From a virus: DNA of 20,702 bases. The stretch lies in the IMG/VR virus record IMGVR_UViG_3300046507_000003, positions 1-20,702 of that record. The stretch is one strand, 5' to 3'. Shown here piece by piece: positions 12,691 to 20,509 of this stretch (within the stretch, counting starts at the first letter, position 1; every line of letters starts with the position of its first letter). The position numbers were made by a program, and so were the translations under genes. The notes under the pieces were generated by a model, which saw only the letters and a list, made by a program, of their open reading frames with translations, had not been told where the DNA came from and searched no databases.

Positions 12691-13097
12691 TCACAGCCGA
12701 AGAAGTAGACGCGCTATTAGACTGCCAATATAAAGAGGGTTCTTTCGGACCGCCCGAAAACGGCTTTAATTGCTGGGGTTTACTTCACTATGTCCAGGCC
12801 GTTTACTTTGGCGTACAGATGCCCCGTGCCCCTATCGGCGATGCCGAGCGTTGTAAGCAGATGTTCGCGGACCATGTTACGGCGGATGTGTGGGCACTAG
12901 TTGAAAAGCCAGAACACGGCAACGGCGCTTTAATGCGCGGCGGTGATAATCCGCATGTCGGTATCTATCTTGATTTTGACGGGGGTGGCATACTTCACGC
13001 ACTTGAAGGCGTCGGCGTAGTGTTTACAACGGTTGACCGTCTTAACTATATGGGCTTCGCCCGTACCAAATATTACAGGTTATCAAATGGCGGCTAA
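12687..13097 (+). CDS. NlpC/P60 tail-tip peptidase (lambda gpK-like)
   Basis: A 136-residue protein with an NlpC/P60-type cysteine peptidase signature: FNCWGLLHYV with the likely nucleophile Cys29, then NPHVGIYLD with His90 and a nearby His104 (ILHALEG). In this family the enzymes cut peptidoglycan peptides, and in tails they act at the tip during DNA entry or tip assembly. It sits between the DUF1833 and J-like genes, as in lambda where K lies between L and I/J. Its 3' end overlaps the J-like gene by 11 bases. A lambda gpK-like JAB domain is not present, so only the NlpC half is encoded here. Which residue acts as the third catalytic position is a guess. Confidence 0.88.
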   Translation: MITAEEVDALLDCQYKEGSFGPPENGFNCWGLLHYVQAVYFGVQMPRAPIGDAERCKQMFADHVTADVWALVEKPEHGNGALMRGGDNPHVGIYLDFDGGGILHALEGVGVVFTTVDRLNYMGFARTKYYRLSNGG

Positions 13098-16000
13098 CTT
13101 AGTTATTCATAAAGACCCGTTTCGCCCTGCGTTAAACGTCGAAACTAGTAAAGTTAAAGACGGGCAAACTATTTGGCAAACGTTGGTTGATAGTGGATTC
13201 TGTACACCGCTGGAACATCGTATTGCCCGTAACGGTCCTTTTATTGTTCTGCTTAACGGCGAATTGATCTTAGAAGCCGATTGGGCGGTTTTGCTTAACG
13301 AAGACGACGTGGTACAGGTTACACGTCTGCCGCGTGGCGGCGGTAAAGGTGGTTCGAACGTCGGTAACATTCTTGGCGCTATCGTTATTGCCGTTGCCGC
13401 TTATTTCACGTTCGGTCTTAGTCTGGTCGCAACGGCGGCGGTAGGTGTCGGCGCATTCGCTGCGTTAAGCCTTATGACTGGCGCTGTCCCTGCGCCGACT
13501 ACGGCTATCGGTTCGTCGGGCGAAAGTCCTAGCCCTACTTACTCGCTCAATGCGCAGGGTAACATTCCGCGTTTGCTCCAGGCGATGCCGCGCATTTATG
13601 GCCGCGTTCAAACAACGCCGGACTTTGCCGCTTTGCCTTACTCCGAATACGAAGGCAACGAACAGTATCTGTATCAACTGTTTTGCATTTCGTTGGGCGC
13701 TGTCGAAATCGAATCGATTACTTTCGACAATACCCTTATCGGTAACTTTCCAGACGCTCAATACGAAATCATTAATCCGGGTGGCGCGGTTACTCTTTTC
13801 CCTGACAACGTTGTTACGTCGGACGCTGTTACCGGTCAAACTCTGCTAGCGCCGAACAATCCAGGCTATACGATTGTCGGCCCGTACGTTGCTGTACCTG
13901 CCGGTAAGACTGCAAACTTTATCGCTGTCGACATTGCCGCGCCTCAAGGTGTTGGGCGGATCGATGATAACGGCAAGACGGTTTCGAACTCTGTCGAGGT
14001 TTCGTTTGAATATCAAACCATCGACGATGCGGGCAACGCTATTTCGGCTTGGCTGCCGCTTGTTACCAAGACTTTAACCTTTGCGACTACACAGGCGCAA
14101 ATCATCACTATTAAGGTTCCGGTTACACCGGCCCGTTACCAGATTCGCGGGCGTCGTTTCACCAACGAAGTTCTAGATAACCGCACTTACGACACCGTAC
14201 AATGGACGGGTCTACGTTCGTATTTGTCTTCGACTTACACTTACGGCAACTGTACGCTTTTGGCGGTGAAAGCCCGCGCTACTAACTCGCTCAACTCTAC
14301 GACGGCGCGTCGTCTGCAAGTCGTTGCAATCGGTAAGACTTCAACTTGGGACCCTGTTAACGGTTGGGGGCCGCTGGTTTCGAATACTTCCCCGGCTTGG
14401 GCGGCGGCAGATATTCTAATGCATCCCGAATACGGGCGCGGTCTGCCCACAAGTCGGCTTAACATTAACAAGTTGTACGCGCTGGCTCAAACCTGGCAAT
14501 CCAGGGGCGACACGTTTAACGGCGTGTTTGACAGTACGTCGCAACTATGGGAATCGCTTAGCGCTGTGCTGCGCGTTGGTCGCTGCGTTCCAATGTATTA
14601 CGCCGGCGTTATCGATTTTATTCGTGATGAGCCGCAAAGCATTCCGACTGCCTCTTTTCAACCGGGTAACATCATTGCCGGTTCGTTTAAGACGACTTAT
14701 AACTTTTTCGACGTTAACACGCCGGATCACGTCATTATTAACTATCGCGATTCCACTACATGGGAACCGGCGCAAGTATCTTGCACGCTGCCAGGGGAAA
14801 CCGCGCTTAACCCTAAGACGATTGACTTTTTCGGTTGCACTAGCCGCGATCAGGCTTGGCGCGAAGGAATGTCGATGGTTGCCGCTAACCGGGACCGTCG
14901 CCGCCGTATTTCGTTTTCGACTTTAACCGAAGCGTTGGTGTTGAAATACAACGGTCTTATCCGTGTTTCGCACGACGTCCCGCAATGGGGTTTCAGCGGT
15001 CGCGTACTTAGCTTTAATGCAACTGCCGGTATTCTTCGCACTAGCGAGCCTGTCCCGTTTGATATTTCAACCACCAACGTTATCGCGTTCCGTAAGAAAG
15101 ACGGCAGCGAACACGGACCGTTTACCATGTCGAGGGATTCGACAATAGACGAAGAAAACGGCGTGTTTGGCTGCGTTGTTGGCGGCACACTTGCGCAGCG
15201 TCAAGCAATCTTTATTTCGGACGGTACTCGCCAGGACTACACATTCTATCAATGCGGCCCGACCGAGAAATGCGGTATTAAGGCGCTTGTCATGTCCATT
15301 ACACCGGACGCGGACGGCAAAGTAAGGGTCGAATGTATCAACTACGCGGACAGCGTTTACAGTGCCGAAAACGGCGGTGTAGTTCCGCCGCCCGGTCCTG
15401 AATCCAGTTTGCCGACAACACCGACTAACCCGATTATCGACCGCGTTAGCGTCGTGTACACGGTGACAGTGGGGGAACAAAACGTTATCGCTACGCCTGC
15501 GCGTGGCGCGATTTACTACGAATTCCAAGCGAAGTTAACCGGGCAAAGCGATTGGGCTATCCTTGGCAACCAAGATACTCCGATTATGGTTGTTCACTTG
15601 CAGGCCGGTAACTGGTCGGTACGCGTTCGCGGTATCGGTCGCAACCCTGGACCCTGGACAACTTGGACCGGCGACATTGCGTCAACAAGTCTGCCGACCG
15701 CTACACTAGACACTTTCGTTGCGGCTAAGGCGCTTTGGGCGATTGATCTTTCTTGGACCTATTCGGCGGCGTCGGCTTCCCTGGCAAAGAACGTCGAAAT
15801 TTGGGCCGGTCTTACTAACGTCCTCGGTAACGCTAGCCGTGTCGCTAACCTGCCTTACCCTGCGAACAAGTTCACGATTACGAACTTGGTGGCAGCCGAA
15901 GGACGGTATTTGTGGGCACGCGTCATAGACACAGCCGGTCGGATTGGCCCTTGGTTCAATAACGGCGTTCCGATTTATCAAATTGCCGAAGACAGCGCGG

Positions 16001-17118
16001 CAAAGATCCTGGCTTACCTGACGCAACAGATTTCCGATTCGCAATTAACTATTGCGTTGCTGGATAAGATCGAAAACCCGATTGTCGATTTCGGCCCGGT
16101 TTATGCGGCTATCGATCACGAAGAAACGCAGCGGATTAACGGTGACACTGCGCTTACGACTATCACGACGAACCAGCAAACAACGATTAACGCCAACTCT
16201 TCGGCAATTGCACAAGAGGCAACCACCCGTTCTAACGCCGACTCGACTTTAACGACTCAAGTAAACACCGCTGCAAGTACCGCGAACGCAGGCTTAGCCC
16301 TGGCGCAAACAGTACAAACAACCGCCGCTAACACCAACGGCGATTTGGCGGCGATGTACAACATCAAAACACAAATCGACGTCAACGGTCGTACTTACGT
16401 TGCAAGTATCGGGGTAGGGGTTAGCAACACTGGCGGGATTATCGAGTCGCAAATTTTGCTTGCGGCTTCACGGTTTGCAATCATCGATCCGAACAGCGGA
16501 AGTCTAAAGGTCCCGTTTGCCTATTATAATGGCGCGGTCTACATGAACCTTGCGATGATTGAAAACGCTTCGATCACCACGGCGAAAATCGGCGACGCGC
16601 AGATTACAGCGGCCAAGATTGCTAGTGCTAACATTCTTACCGCTCACATTGCAGACGCCCAAATCCTTACGGCAAAGATTGCCGACCTTTCGGTTAACAC
16701 CCTTAAAATCGCCGGGCGCTCTGTTACTGTCCCTTCCCTGGCATTCAGCAACGGTTTGCACGACATTACGGGTTCTACCGGTAACGGCGTTTTGAACTTC
16801 GTAACAACGCAATCTTTGACCGTAGCTGTACCCGAAAACACTTACGCTTCTGTTAATATCTCGTTCGGCCAATGCGGCCAAGCTGGATTGCCTCAAGTTG
16901 GCGTCGGTGCGTGGCGCTTGTGGCATAACGGCGCAATCATCGCAACCGGTGACGGCGTTCAACAGTTCGGTTCGACTGCCGCATGTATCGCGGTGACGGC
17001 CATTGCGGGCAACAACACTTTCGATTTGCAGGTATCGCCGCACGCAGGTACGGGCGTTGTTGCTTACGGTATCACCGTTCAAACACGGGCAATCTCTTTT
17101 ATGGCGGTTATGCGATGA
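13087..17118 (+). CDS. Tail tip host-specificity protein (I-J fusion, gpJ-like)
   Basis: A 1343-residue protein. ATG 13087 overlaps the previous gene by 11 bases and yields the family-typical MAANLVIHKDPFRPAL start; the in-frame extension to 13033 lies in the peptidase gene. Residues 1-85 are a beta-grasp-like domain (as in lambda gpI), followed by a glycine-rich GGGKGG and a long hydrophobic segment (about 96-130). The J-like hub begins near YSLNAQGNIPR (about 152). Two fibronectin-III-like domains follow (about 766-868 and 868-956), then a helical, heptad-like part, a DUF1983-like domain (about 1095-1150), five 10-residue repeats (1163-1212) and a beta-rich C-terminus that probably contacts the receptor. 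It should be a trimer at the tail tip. Boundaries are estimates. Confidence 0.9.
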   Translation: MAANLVIHKDPFRPALNVETSKVKDGQTIWQTLVDSGFCTPLEHRIARNGPFIVLLNGELILEADWAVLLNEDDVVQVTRLPRGGGKGGSNVGNILGAIVIAVAAYFTFGLSLVATAAVGVGAFAALSLMTGAVPAPTTAIGSSGESPSPTYSLNAQGNIPRLLQAMPRIYGRVQTTPDFAALPYSEYEGNEQYLYQLFCISLGAVEIESITFDNTLIGNFPDAQYEIINPGGAVTLFPDNVVTSDAVTGQTLLAPNNPGYTIVGPYVAVPAGKTANFIAVDIAAPQGVGRIDDNGKTVSNSVEVSFEYQTIDDAGNAISAWLPLVTKTLTFATTQAQIITIKVPVTPARYQIRGRRFTNEVLDNRTYDTVQWTGLRSYLSSTYTYGNCTLLAVKARATNSLNSTTARRLQVVAIGKTSTWDPVNGWGPLVSNTSPAWAAADILMHPEYGRGLPTSRLNINKLYALAQTWQSRGDTFNGVFDSTSQLWESLSAVLRVGRCVPMYYAGVIDFIRDEPQSIPTASFQPGNIIAGSFKTTYNFFDVNTPDHVIINYRDSTTWEPAQVSCTLPGETALNPKTIDFFGCTSRDQAWREGMSMVAANRDRRRRISFSTLTEALVLKYNGLIRVSHDVPQWGFSGRVLSFNATAGILRTSEPVPFDISTTNVIAFRKKDGSEHGPFTMSRDSTIDEENGVFGCVVGGTLAQRQAIFISDGTRQDYTFYQCGPTEKCGIKALVMSITPDADGKVRVECINYADSVYSAENGGVVPPPGPESSLPTTPTNPIIDRVSVVYTVTVGEQNVIATPARGAIYYEFQAKLTGQSDWAILGNQDTPIMVVHLQAGNWSVRVRGIGRNPGPWTTWTGDIASTSLPTATLDTFVAAKALWAIDLSWTYSAASASLAKNVEIWAGLTNVLGNASRVANLPYPANKFTITNLVAAEGRYLWARVIDTAGRIGPWFNNGVPIYQIAEDSAAKILAYLTQQISDSQLTIALLDKIENPIVDFGPVYAAIDHEETQRINGDTALTTITTNQQTTINANSSAIAQEATTRSNADSTLTTQVNTAASTANAGLALAQTVQTTAANTNGDLAAMYNIKTQIDVNGRTYVASIGVGVSNTGGIIESQILLAASRFAIIDPNSGSLKVPFAYYNGAVYMNLAMIENASITTAKIGDAQITAAKIASANILTAHIADAQILTAKIADLSVNTLKIAGRSVTVPSLAFSNGLHDITGSTGNGVLNFVTTQSLTVAVPENTYASVNISFGQCGQAGLPQVGVGAWRLWHNGAIIATGDGVQQFGSTAACIAVTAIAGNNTFDLQVSPHAGTGVVAYGITVQTRAISFMAVMR
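16573..16722 (+). repeat. Five tandem 10-residue repeats in the J-like protein
   Basis: Five 30-base units encode ITTAKIGDAQ, ITAAKIASAN, ILTAHIADAQ, ILTAKIADLS and VNTLKIAGRS. The consensus is I-x-T-A-K-I-x-(D/S)-A-(Q/N). A regular hydrophobic spacing suggests a trimeric beta-helix or coiled stalk that links the DUF1983 part to the receptor-binding tip. Confidence 0.85.
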
Positions 17119-17516
17119 CAGATTACGAACACCAACCCGAACACCCTGATAGATCGATTAAGATTGTTGATTACGACAAGACGACCGGCCAGATTAACCG
17201 CGTCGTCACCTACTACGAAGCGGAACACGCGGGTGAATTGTATCCCGGTTGCCTTTACCTGCCGGTTGAAACCGAGACTAACGACATGCTGTTTTATGTC
17301 AAAGATTCGTCGGTTTTGCCGCGCCCGGTATCTACTGTCTACTTAGACGGCGCAAAGCTCTGTAATGTAAGAGAAAACGCCGCCGTTATTATTGACGGTG
17401 AAACCTACACGGCAGACGGTAGCGAAATTACCTTAGAGTTTTCGCATTCGGGCCAGTACCTAATCACCGTTAAAGATTGGCCTTTCCTCGATTGGAGCGG
17501 GATTTATGAAAATTAA
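17115..17516 (+). CDS. Tail accessory protein downstream of J, unknown
   Basis: A 133-residue acidic protein whose ATG overlaps the J-like stop (ATGA), so the two are coupled. It has a DYEHQPEHPDRS start, a GQINRVVTYYEAE strand with a following CLYLPVE turn, a D..VIIDGETYTADGSEITLEF region (about 90-110), and ends YLITVKDWPFLDWSGIYEN. That ending, with a LITVxxWPFLD strand, is common in small proteins encoded just after tail-tip genes of many siphophages. A small beta-sandwich partner of the J-like protein or fibre is plausible. Longer in-frame starts lie inside J and are rejected. I do not know the exact function. Confidence 0.75.
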   Translation: MTDYEHQPEHPDRSIKIVDYDKTTGQINRVVTYYEAEHAGELYPGCLYLPVETETNDMLFYVKDSSVLPRPVSTVYLDGAKLCNVRENAAVIIDGETYTADGSEITLEFSHSGQYLITVKDWPFLDWSGIYEN

Positions 17517-17679
17517 CCATCGCGCAGATATAGCAAGTCGCCGGGCGAACGAGTATCCTAAAGTGGAAGACCAGTTAGACGCCATATGGCACGCTATGAA
17601 TAACGGTCAACTACCAAAGATCGAAGGCTTTTACGAAAACATCAAAGCCGTTAAAGATCGCCACCCGAAAAAGGAATAA
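17506..17679 (+). CDS. Small tail-region protein (57 aa), unknown
   Basis: A 57-residue gene overlapping the upstream gene by 11 bases and ending 5 bases before the lipoprotein start. It encodes MKINHRADIASRRANEYP, then VEDQLDAIWHAMNNGQLPKI, EGFYENIKAVKDRHPKKE. The YPxVEDQLDAIWHAM and FYxxIKAVKDxxPK motifs recur in small phage proteins next to tail-fibre genes, so it is a real gene despite its size. The composition is mainly helical and charged, with no signal peptide or membrane segment. GGAG (17496-17499) precedes the ATG with about 6 bases spacing. The likely role is tail-fibre or tail-tip related but unproven. Confidence 0.82.
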   Translation: MKINHRADIASRRANEYPKVEDQLDAIWHAMNNGQLPKIEGFYENIKAVKDRHPKKE

Positions 17680-17684
17680 CAGAA

Positions 17685-17972
17685 ATGCGTACATCTAAGC
17701 TCGCTGTTGCCCTGTTTACCGCTGCCATTCTGTCCGGTTGTGCCCACACTAGCTGGCAGGAATACGCGGACACGAACAACTGCCAGCCTACCGGTAACAG
17801 CGACCTCAAGAAAGAGGTTAACAGTGTGGGCATACAGAGCGGTAACGGCATGGGCTTAGGTGTTCCGGCAACAATCGCAATACCGACCGTAAGCGTACGG
17901 CGCGTCTATCAATTCCAATGCGACAACGGCGTTATTTGGGCGTACCAAACCAAAGGCAAACAGAAAGAGTAA
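17685..17972 (+). CDS. Phage-encoded outer-membrane lipoprotein
   Basis: A 95-residue protein with a complete lipoprotein signal: basic start (MRTSK), hydrophobic core (LAVALFTAAI) and lipobox LSGC with Cys19. The residue after Cys19 is alanine, so by the +2 rule the mature 77-residue product should go to the outer membrane. The mature part has cysteines 33 and 79 that could form a disulfide, a glycine-rich stretch (about 49-62) and a beta-rich C-terminal half (VSVRRVYQFQCDNGVIWAYQTK). AAGGA (17671-17675) precedes ATG by 9 bases. It lies between tail-tip and fibre genes. Known phage lipoproteins such as T5 Llp or Cor block receptors to exclude further phage; a spanin-type Rz1 role is less likely, as no Rz partner is adjacent. 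The specific function is inference. Confidence 0.85.
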   Translation: MRTSKLAVALFTAAILSGCAHTSWQEYADTNNCQPTGNSDLKKEVNSVGIQSGNGMGLGVPATIAIPTVSVRRVYQFQCDNGVIWAYQTKGKQKE

Positions 17973-17977
17973 ATCTA

Positions 17978-20509
17978 ATGGTAATGACGTATCGCGACAC
18001 CAAAGGTACGCCGCTAACGTTCGCGGAGGTTGACGCCAACTTTCGGGATGTTTACGGGCGCGTAACGAACATCAACTTGGCCGGTCTATCTGCGCTGACG
18101 CCTGGGGCCGATTTGCTGCCGTACTTTACCGGCATCACTGGCACAATGGCGACGACGGGCTTAACGGCGTTCGCCCGTAGTCTGCTTAGCGACGCGACAC
18201 AGGCCGCTATGCAGACGCGGTTAGGCTTGGTCCCAACGGTAGGCAAGTACGATACAACGGTCGGTCGCGTTCTCAAAGTCGGCGATTTTGGCATCGGTCT
18301 AACTACAATGTCGGGGCTTCCCGTCTCCAACCTCGACGACGTAACGCTGGGTAACGGCCTGTATGCGGTCAGTTCGTCCACTACCGGGGCCAAACCGGCA
18401 ACGTTTGGTATTTTGGCCGTAGTTGGTCGAAATAACATCGTCGGTTCTAACGGTCGGGTCATACAGACCTTTTACGAGACTGATACGACTACCGCACCTC
18501 GTATATGGAATCGGGTTTATCTGTCCAACACATCGACTTGGGGCGTTTGGGATTTACAATGGTCTGCGAACAACCTAGTCAAAACATCTAGCCAGACCGA
18601 TACAACGGCAGGTTCGATGCTCAAAGTTGGCGATTATGGATTGGGTTCTACAACTGTCCCGCTTGCGACCGGCGATATCGACGCGCTTACTGTAAATGCG
18701 TCGTACAACATTACAGCCGATGTTGTTACCGGCACTTTCCCGGCTGGTAAATCGTCGGTTAGGTATCACATTCTAAGACACGTTCAATACGCGGCTACGT
18801 CGGCGTGGCAAGAGCTATTAGACCGCGACAATAACACCCTTTACTTTCGCGGTAAGTCTTCTAGCACTTGGTCGGCATGGGTTAAAGTTTGGACTGACGC
18901 GACTTTGGTTAAGACAACAAGCCAAAACGACACAACTGCCGGTTCGATGTTGAAAGTAGGCGACTTCGGCATAGGTGCGCTTAACCAGATTGCGGCAGGT
19001 ACTGACCTTAACGACATTACCGTACCTGGCATGTACGGCCAACCCGCGACCGCAAACGCGACTCTTGTTTTAAACTACCCTGTGGCTACAGCGGGTACTT
19101 TGTTTGTACAACGAGGCGGTGCCTCGATTGTCGTTCAAATGTATTTGGAGTATTTCACTGGTCGGCTTTGGACTCGCGGCATTTACATTGGAGCCCCTAG
19201 CGCCTGGATTTGCAGTTGGGACACCGGCAACCTCGCCAAGACAACAACCAACACCGATACGACCGCAGGTCGAATGCTCAAAGTTGGCGATTATGGATTG
19301 GGTAACACTGGCGGGCCACCTTCGGTCACGGATGCGAACAGCGCTACAACGGCGGGCTTTTATCGCCTTAATACCCCGTACACTAACGGCCCGACCGCTG
19401 GCGCATACGCCATTATCGTACAACGGTACGATAACGAAGTTACGCAGATTGCATTTCAAGAAGGGTTTGGTATCCCCCAATTGTGGATGCGACAACGGCA
19501 AGGCGCGTCCGCATGGGGTAACTGGTATCAGGCTGCAATTGTTGACGGCGCCGGTGTTAACTCTTCGATTAAGAGTCTTGCGGGTCTGGTGAATACACCC
19601 TCGCGAAATATCCTTATTAACGGTGATTTCCGAATCGCCCAACGCGGAGCTAGTGTCACCGTTAACAGTCCGGGTACGTCGTACGGCGGTCCCGACAGAT
19701 GGATTTTAGTTAACCAAAGCACGGGCGCGCAAATTGTACAGTTTTTGTCGACCATCACTGAAAACGGCGTCGCTTACCCCGCTGTCGTTCAACAACTAAA
19801 CACACTTTATACCGACCTTGGGACTAACAAGTTTCACGGCGGCATACACCAGCGAATGGAAGGGTTTAACGTCCAAAGATTGCTAGGTAGACCTGCAACT
19901 TTATCGTTCCTGTTTATGGCCAAAAAGTCGGCAACCGTTCCGGTATGTTTGCGCGGCGGGGGTGTCTCTTTCGTTACAACATTCGCATGCGTGGCTAACA
20001 CACCGATACGTGTTACGATTCCTATTCCGACTTTCCCTGTCGGGATGGCGTTTCCAAACAGCAACGCTAACGCGTTAGAATTGCAGATAGGCGCGCAAAA
20101 TAACGGCGACTACGTTACCGCCACACAAAATATCTGGATTGGCGGTACGTTTATGAAACCTACCGGCCAATGGTATAACGCCGTAGGTGACTGGATTTCA
20201 GTAGCAGAATGTCAACTTGAAATCGGCGATAAAACGCCGTTCGATTACGAAGACATTGCGGTTAACCAAACGCGCTGCCAACGGTACTTCGAGGTTATTC
20301 TAGGGACCGTTAGCCCGTCGCAGGGAACATGGTTACACCGTCCGTATAAGGTTTCAAAACGATCTGTTCCTACCCTGACACTAATGAGCGGTAGCCTAGT
20401 CGGTGCTAGCATGGATACTTCGGGCGGCTTGTACAGTATGAGAGCACCGGCAGGCGCATTACCATCGTCCGATTCGGACTTTACTGTTTATGTAGACGCG
20501 GAGCTTTAA
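17978..20509 (+). CDS. Tail fibre with four tandem knob-like modules
   Basis: An 843-residue protein. ATG 17978 follows AAAGAG and gives MVMTYRDTKGTPLTFAEVDANF, the GxPLTxxEVDANF start common to phage fibres; earlier in-frame ATGs lie inside the lipoprotein gene. Four modules of about 110 residues follow. Each opens with a linker like DTTAGxMLKVGD(Y/F)G(L/I)G (near residues 99, 215, 325, 434) and ends with a W-x-x-W strand (WGVWDLQW, WSAWVKVW, WICSW, WGNWYQ), similar to pyocin-knob domains of R-pyocin fibres. From about 544, NILINGDFRIAQRG and DRW begin a beta-sandwich resembling carbohydrate-binding modules. The last 85 residues (from TRCQRYFEVI) form a separate tip. It probably binds surface polysaccharide or protein receptors. 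Confidence 0.88.
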   Translation: MVMTYRDTKGTPLTFAEVDANFRDVYGRVTNINLAGLSALTPGADLLPYFTGITGTMATTGLTAFARSLLSDATQAAMQTRLGLVPTVGKYDTTVGRVLKVGDFGIGLTTMSGLPVSNLDDVTLGNGLYAVSSSTTGAKPATFGILAVVGRNNIVGSNGRVIQTFYETDTTTAPRIWNRVYLSNTSTWGVWDLQWSANNLVKTSSQTDTTAGSMLKVGDYGLGSTTVPLATGDIDALTVNASYNITADVVTGTFPAGKSSVRYHILRHVQYAATSAWQELLDRDNNTLYFRGKSSSTWSAWVKVWTDATLVKTTSQNDTTAGSMLKVGDFGIGALNQIAAGTDLNDITVPGMYGQPATANATLVLNYPVATAGTLFVQRGGASIVVQMYLEYFTGRLWTRGIYIGAPSAWICSWDTGNLAKTTTNTDTTAGRMLKVGDYGLGNTGGPPSVTDANSATTAGFYRLNTPYTNGPTAGAYAIIVQRYDNEVTQIAFQEGFGIPQLWMRQRQGASAWGNWYQAAIVDGAGVNSSIKSLAGLVNTPSRNILINGDFRIAQRGASVTVNSPGTSYGGPDRWILVNQSTGAQIVQFLSTITENGVAYPAVVQQLNTLYTDLGTNKFHGGIHQRMEGFNVQRLLGRPATLSFLFMAKKSATVPVCLRGGGVSFVTTFACVANTPIRVTIPIPTFPVGMAFPNSNANALELQIGAQNNGDYVTATQNIWIGGTFMKPTGQWYNAVGDWISVAECQLEIGDKTPFDYEDIAVNQTRCQRYFEVILGTVSPSQGTWLHRPYKVSKRSVPTLTLMSGSLVGASMDTSGGLYSMRAPAGALPSSDSDFTVYVDAEL
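18242..19305 (+). repeat. Repeated linker motifs in tail fibre, including an exact 30-base repeat
   Basis: The motif encoding DTTxGxxLKVGD(Y/F)G occurs four times; its L-K-V triplet begins at 18272, 18620, 18950 and 19277 (spacings 348, 330, 327 bases, all in frame). Copies 2 and 4 share an exact 30-base identity (18617-18646 and 19274-19303). The nearly identical DNA could permit recombination that removes or adds two modules (219 codons). Confidence 0.88.

What the first reader, a model, noticed from the sequence alone, without database searches (positions are those of the whole stretch)
17685..17972. Lipoprotein gene inside the receptor-binding operon: candidate superinfection exclusion factor
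A lipobox-bearing 95-residue protein with predicted outer-membrane sorting (Cys19 followed by Ala) is encoded between the tail tip and tail fibre genes. Phage lipoproteins such as T5 Llp and the Cor family are known to bind the phage's own receptor and block secondary infection or inactivation of released virions. The two cysteines in the mature part suggest a small disulfide-stabilised fold. Co-location with the receptor-binding proteins would let lipoprotein and fibre specificity be exchanged together. The function is inferred; the lipobox is seen directly.
Basis: partly seen in the sequence, partly recalled or inferred. Interest (0 to 1): 0.65.

Follow-up and report, generated by a model that had tools for sequence, protein, structure and literature searches.

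The report
Phage receptor-locus lipoprotein, probable self-exclusion factor
A bacterial virus carries, among the genes it uses to recognise its host, a small lipid-anchored protein that probably blocks the virus's own entry receptor once a cell is infected; the idea is known from T5 and T1, but this protein is built on an unrelated, unnamed domain.

Summary
Window 17685-17972 encodes a 95-aa lipoprotein (LSGC lipobox, Cys19, Ala at +2) with exactly two cysteines in the mature part (C33, C79). It lies in a tight late operon: J, 133 aa, 57 aa, lipoprotein, tail fibre. It is not homologous to T5 Llp or Cor: their PHROG does not match it and pairwise scores equal shuffles. It does occupy their slot. 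N15 reads J, gp22, gp23, cor, fibre; T5 llp abuts the pb5 gene. The only close relative found, gp90 of the N4-like Pseudomonas phage phCDa, sits between a J-like/adaptor/receptor-binding trio and the long tail fibre, a slot that is empty in LIT1. The mature domain is a divergent branch of an unnamed, widespread family (W..F...H.C...CDDGVTYW) that elsewhere is anchored by a transmembrane helix in phages, prophages and Klebsiella plasmids, away from tail genes. Best reading: a receptor-blocking lipoprotein that works like Llp/Cor but evolved separately (about 0.55). A spanin is unlikely. Function is untested. Novelty: new variant of a known kind.

The parts
17685..17972 (+). lipoprotein gene (95 aa); signal peptide 1-18, lipidated Cys19, mature domain with C33 and C79
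   Evidence: homologue phCDa gp90
17739..17741 (+). codon of Cys19, predicted lipid attachment site (LSG|C, +2 Ala)
   Evidence: direct reading
17754..17939 (+). W24..C79..W85 domain, remote branch of the CDDGVTYW family (helix 24-30, strands 34-46, 68-78, 84-91)
13087..17118 (+). J-like central tail-tip protein (1343 aa); the last ~145 aa are unmatched (probable receptor-contact extension)
17115..17516 (+). 133-aa J-adjacent protein (phrog_18216; homologues after J in Iggy and PARCL1pr)
17506..17679 (+). 57-aa J-adjacent protein (phrog_2687; homologues after J in phiAxp-1, nyashin_LB6, PARCL1pr)
17978..20509 (+). lateral tail fibre (843 aa), C-terminal 325 aa 48% identical to Pseudomonas putida phage fibres

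Best explanation
It is a late-expressed, probably outer-membrane lipoprotein. After Sec export, SPII cleavage and lipidation at Cys19, its small disulphide-closed periplasmic domain (C33-C79) binds the periplasmic side of the phage's own outer-membrane receptor or an associated part. That makes the receptor unusable: further particles of the same specificity are excluded, and progeny are not lost on the envelope fragments of lysed cells. In effect it works like T5 Llp and T1/N15/phi80 Cor, but its domain comes from an unrelated, mostly inner-membrane-anchored family. Shown here: the gene, lipobox, cysteine pair, slot in the receptor module, and homology to phCDa gp90 and to the CDDGVTYW family. 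Inferred: outer-membrane sorting, the disulphide, receptor binding and exclusion.
For: (1) Same slot as known exclusion lipoproteins: N15 J-gp22-gp23-cor-fibre, T1 cor beside the same module, T5 llp beside the pb5 gene on the opposite strand. (2) The one close homologue, phCDa gp90 in an N4-like podovirus, lies between gp93-gp92-gp91 and the 1028-aa long fibre. gp93 is 52% identical to LIT1 gp56. gp92 and gp91 are homologous to the post-J pair of Achromobacter phage AMA2. LIT1 has only 38 bp at that place. In DEV the matching gp54 is the LptD-binding protein (PMC12892993). So the same lipoprotein type is in the receptor-binding slot of two unrelated phages. (3) Same architecture as Llp and Cor: lipid Cys plus exactly two mature cysteines 46 apart (Llp 47, Cor 48). 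Llp has an intramolecular disulphide (PMC9586334). (4) Lipoproteins in the structural cluster of mEpimmI phages exclude their own phages when expressed (PMC11893012). (5) No spanin partner; phCDa has its own Rz and embedded Rz1.
Against: No sequence similarity to Llp or Cor. Most members of the domain family are transmembrane-anchored and lie near regulatory and replication genes or on plasmids, so the domain is not tied to receptors as such. None of the other phages checked that share the J module carries a family member. The cysteine spacing in phCDa gp90 is only 28, and its gene is on the strand opposite to the tail genes. The structure model is of low to moderate confidence and matches nothing solved. 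No receptor is known.
Confidence: 0.55

Rival explanations
1. An envelope-acting accessory of the CDDGVTYW domain family with no link to the receptor: a general periplasmic protein (for example an inhibitor of an envelope enzyme, a stabiliser, or an adhesion or stress factor) that happens to be encoded in the late operon.
For: The domain family is broad: phages, prophages and Klebsiella IncHI1B plasmids with tandem copies, TM-anchored and away from tail genes in the loci looked at. No named family matches.
Against: Both lipoprotein members sit at receptor-recognition modules of unrelated phages, which is not expected of a general accessory.
Confidence: 0.2
2. A superinfection exclusion factor that acts after adsorption, at DNA entry through the envelope (blocking the tail tip, tape measure or injection in the periplasm) and not on the receptor.
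For: TM-anchored relatives on phages and conjugative plasmids would fit exclusion at the inner membrane. The mEpimmI authors name interference with DNA ejection as an alternative for lipoproteins.
Against: The lipoprotein form and its receptor-module slot fit receptor contact better. The TM-anchored relatives have no tested function.
Confidence: 0.15
3. An outer-membrane lysis lipoprotein (o-spanin, Rz1-like) or other lysis part.
For: Phage lipoproteins are often o-spanins (general knowledge); the gene is late.
Against: No overlapping or adjacent i-spanin, no proline-rich mature part, no other lysis gene recognised in the window. The homologue's genome has a separate Rz with embedded Rz1. No lysis PHROG matches.
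Confidence: 0.04
4. A tail-assembly or virion component that needs membrane anchoring during fibre maturation.
For: It is in one tight operon with J and the fibre, with no promoter or terminator of its own.
Against: It is absent from the other phages checked that have the same J/133/57-aa module, so it is not needed for assembly there; phCDa encodes it on the opposite strand.
Confidence: 0.06

Closest known systems
phCDa gp90 (Pseudomonas phage phCDa, Schitoviridae)
   Same: lipobox, W..[FY]AD.N.C..TG, IP..RRV..FQC....W; adjacent to receptor-binding genes; 0 of 20,000 shuffles reach its score
   Different: shorter loop (cysteines 28 apart), opposite strand to the tail genes; annotated only as hypothetical
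T5 Llp and Cor of T1, N15, phi80 (PHROG 1119)
   Same: small OM lipoprotein with two mature cysteines 46-48 apart, encoded beside the receptor-binding genes
   Different: no sequence similarity, no PHROG 1119 match; longer mature part with a Trp/Tyr helix before the first cysteine and a Gly-rich loop
Unnamed TM-anchored 'W..F...H.C...[PDKTGY]xCDDGVTYW' domain family (phages, prophages, IncHI1B plasmids; near phrog_8826)
   Same: same W-C-C-W order and G.[NS]G loop; profile match 18.9 bits, above all 5,000 shuffles of its mature part; reciprocal search positive
   Different: family is inner-membrane anchored, ends in CDDGVTYWR, and lies near regulatory or replication genes
mEpimmI Lpp021 and Lpp010 lipoproteins
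   Same: lipoproteins in the structural gene cluster, shown to exclude their own phages (PMC11893012)
   Different: sequences not compared here; temperate coliphages

Membership tests
Cor/Llp superinfection exclusion lipoproteins (PHROG 1119) | sequence match to the family profile | tested here: not met
   Llp, Cor N15 and Cor T1 match phrog_1119; this protein does not at E up to 1; pairwise scores equal shuffles
Cor/Llp superinfection exclusion lipoproteins (PHROG 1119) | lipoprotein signal peptide with lipobox and OM-type +2 residue | tested here: met
   LSGC19-A-H; sorting itself not assayed
Cor/Llp superinfection exclusion lipoproteins (PHROG 1119) | two mature cysteines about 47 residues apart, able to form the one intramolecular disulphide | tested here: met
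   count and spacing met (33/79; Llp 26/73, Cor 28/76 and 25/73); bond formation not tested
Cor/Llp superinfection exclusion lipoproteins (PHROG 1119) | gene next to receptor-binding tail genes | tested here: met
Cor/Llp superinfection exclusion lipoproteins (PHROG 1119) | Llp fold | tested here: inconclusive
   model pLDDT 65.8; no strong PDB match of any kind
Cor/Llp superinfection exclusion lipoproteins (PHROG 1119) | blocks receptor and plating when expressed | not testable with these tools
   needs a bench assay
CDDGVTYW small anchored domain family (unnamed) | profile match of the W-C-C domain above shuffled controls | tested here: met
   18.9 bits, best of 5,000 shuffles of its mature part 17.3, other phage lipoproteins at most 1.7; hhalign probability 89-92%
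CDDGVTYW small anchored domain family (unnamed) | C-terminal C[DN]DG[VI]TYW motif | tested here: not met
   here CDNGVIW, one residue shorter before the Trp: a divergent branch, not a typical member
CDDGVTYW small anchored domain family (unnamed) | N-terminal membrane anchor, domain outside the cytoplasm | tested here: met
   lipid anchor in place of a TM helix, from sequence
o-spanin (Rz1) | overlapping or adjacent i-spanin gene | tested here: not met
   no lysis gene next to it; phCDa has a separate Rz/Rz1

The most novel reading that the evidence does not exclude
Receptor-locus exclusion lipoproteins arose more than once: a mobile, disulphide-bonded envelope domain, used elsewhere as a TM-anchored exclusion or envelope factor on phages and conjugative plasmids, was converted to a lipoprotein and placed in the Cor/Llp slot, as a second, non-homologous receptor-blocking family shared by sipho- and podoviruses.
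Probability: 0.35. Interest if true: 0.6.

Novelty: new variant of a known kind. Interest (0 to 1): 0.42.

Why it matters
If true, the slot after the J-like tail tip is a general site for exchangeable receptor-blocking lipoproteins in phages beyond coliphages, filled by unrelated proteins. A lipoprotein there would point to the terminal receptor class of phages with unknown receptors. The unnamed TM-anchored family would become a candidate for exclusion functions on phages and plasmids.

Tried and rejected
Direct relatives of the window protein in viral contigs and genome contigs, single sequence: none. Plasmids with the window protein: none. DNA pattern for W..[FY]A..N.C..TG in viral contigs: 10 matches, only phCDa was real. 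798 bacterial genomes with the window+phCDa profile: one match, a false one without lipobox or family motif; empty answers there prove little, since the positive controls were only phages. Foldseek against BFVD and PDB, and VIA-align: only weak matches, Llp not among them, which is inconclusive. Named Pfam, NCBIfam and PADLOC families: none above cut-off. A lysozyme-inhibitor (MliC-like) reading was considered for the YQFQCDNG stretch, but from memory the order of elements is wrong and no Pfam model matches. A moron with its own promoter and terminator: not supported by the scan. The family was found by a probe written from memory of a motif; the homology claim rests on later tests with sequences found in the databases, not on the probe.

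Full report
Observation. The ORF at 17685-17972 is real: 95 aa, ATG, a good ribosome-binding site, 5-nt gaps to both neighbours, and coding statistics that favour its frame. It has a three-part lipoprotein signal ending in LSGC19 with Ala at +2, and two cysteines in the mature part, C33 and C79. A lipobox rule alone would be met by chance about once in two simulated windows, so the case rests on the combination and on the homologue below.

Surroundings. The window is a late gene block of a tailed phage with a J-type long tail (siphovirus, inferred): head genes, tail tube, tape measure, minor tail proteins, an NlpC/P60-type protein, J (13087-17118), 133 aa, 57 aa, the lipoprotein, and a fibre of 843 aa (head and tube genes read by size and order only). 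J is related to Achromobacter, Burkholderia and Pseudomonas phages, but its last ~145 residues have no counterpart, as expected for a receptor-contact extension. The 133-aa and 57-aa genes form a conserved pair after J in phiAxp-1, PARCL1pr and others, and Iggy has the 133-aa one. The fibre C-terminus is 48% identical to Pseudomonas putida phage fibres, so a Pseudomonas host is likely (inference). No promoter or terminator is seen around the lipoprotein gene, so it is probably transcribed with the tail genes, late.

Relatives. No named family matches; phrog_8826, of unknown function, is the best at E = 0.0013. In 50,697 phage records the only full-length relative is gp90 of phCDa. The mature parts share W..[FY]AD.N.C..TG..KKE and IP..RRV..FQC....W, and none of 20,000 shuffles reaches their score; gp90 also has a lipobox. 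A motif probe then uncovered a widespread family: Xanthomonas and Aeromonas phages, Klebsiella IncHI1B plasmids with tandem copies, 29 viral contigs and 11 bacterial genomes. These are small proteins with an N-terminal transmembrane helix and an outside domain W..F...H.C......G....G....CDDGVTYW. A profile of 37 such domains, made without the window protein or phCDa gp90, scores the window protein at 18.9 bits; the best of 5,000 shuffles of its mature part gets 17.3, the next 12.0, and other phage lipoproteins at most 1.7. In reverse, a two-sequence profile of window and phCDa scores 73% of family domains above 99% of their shuffles and finds the Xanthomonas phage member at E = 6e-7. So the lipoprotein is a divergent branch of this unnamed family. 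The named neighbours of the family are regulatory and replication genes, not tail genes; most neighbours have no known function.

Structure. Two AlphaFold2 models, one without and one with the family alignment, agree on helix 24-30 and strands 34-46, 68-78 and 84-91. Confidence is low to moderate (pLDDT 59.5 and 65.8; up to 85 per ten-residue block in the core). Nothing solved resembles it clearly.

Slot. In N15 the order is J, gp22, gp23, cor, fibre; in T1 cor follows the same pair; in T5 llp lies beside the pb5 gene on the other strand. The BASEL study assigns the genes downstream of gpJ as the receptor-binding loci, with cognate exclusion proteins (PMC8594841), and the KanT1 paper reviews the cor cassette (PMC13164509). 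In phCDa the order is gp93 (429 aa), gp92, gp91, then gp90 on the opposite strand, then the 1028-aa fibre. gp93 is 52% identical to LIT1 gp56; gp92 and gp91 are homologous to the post-J pair of AMA2 and show no match to LIT1 gp55 and gp54; LIT1 has 38 bp and no lipoprotein at that point. In DEV, a close relative of LIT1, gp56-gp55-gp54 is the receptor-binding fibre and gp54 the LptD-binding protein (PMC12892993). Thus the two lipoprotein members found sit at the receptor-binding module of two unrelated phages, and in phCDa the lipoprotein goes with a different receptor-binding pair. This is one comparison, not a statistic. Other phages with the window's J module lack any family member.

Comparison with Llp and Cor. 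Shared: lipoprotein, size class, two mature cysteines 46-48 apart, slot. Not shared: sequence. Llp and both Cor proteins match phrog_1119, this one does not, and pairwise scores are at shuffle level. It therefore is not filed as a Cor/Llp member, but working like one remains the best reading, supported by the tested mEpimmI lipoproteins (PMC11893012) and by the Llp-FhuA structure, where Llp binds from the periplasm (PMC9586334). A further precedent for a lipoprotein gene near the tail fibre of a Pseudomonas prophage is AH14a (PMC4936722).

Verdict. Probable receptor-blocking lipoprotein on a scaffold unrelated to Llp/Cor; 0.55. Spanin, tail part, general envelope accessory and injection block are the rivals. 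Interest is moderate: the kind is known, the protein family and the apparently convergent slot are new.

Noticed in passing
L031:2647-3608 (Klebsiella africana plasmid), L032:2761-3171: IncHI1B-type plasmids of Klebsiella and relatives carry one or two tandem TM-anchored copies of the CDDGVTYW domain (624 plasmid records matched the probe); those looked at are annotated hypothetical.
   Followed up: partly
window 17506-17679: The 57-aa J-adjacent protein has homologues across Synechococcus cyanophages, Pelagibacter and Roseobacter phages (phrog_2687/1787/9114), so it is a widespread small protein of unknown role.
   Followed up: partly
window 16657-17118: The last ~145 residues of J match nothing in the phage collection beyond their first 27 residues, a likely receptor-contact extension.
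   Followed up: partly
L001:5929-6183 (-): phCDa has an unannotated 84-aa lipobox ORF embedded in its Rz gene, a probable Rz1.
   Followed up: no
L001:10240-11222 (-) and L092:4723-5708: The receptor-binding pair gp92-gp91 of an N4-like podovirus is homologous to the post-J pair of a siphovirus (AMA2), which fits horizontal exchange of receptor-binding modules between phage families.
   Followed up: partly
L051, L052, L053: Metagenome phages carry identical 71-aa CDDGVTYW-family proteins in which the loop between the two cysteines is largely deleted, so the loop looks dispensable for the domain.
   Followed up: no
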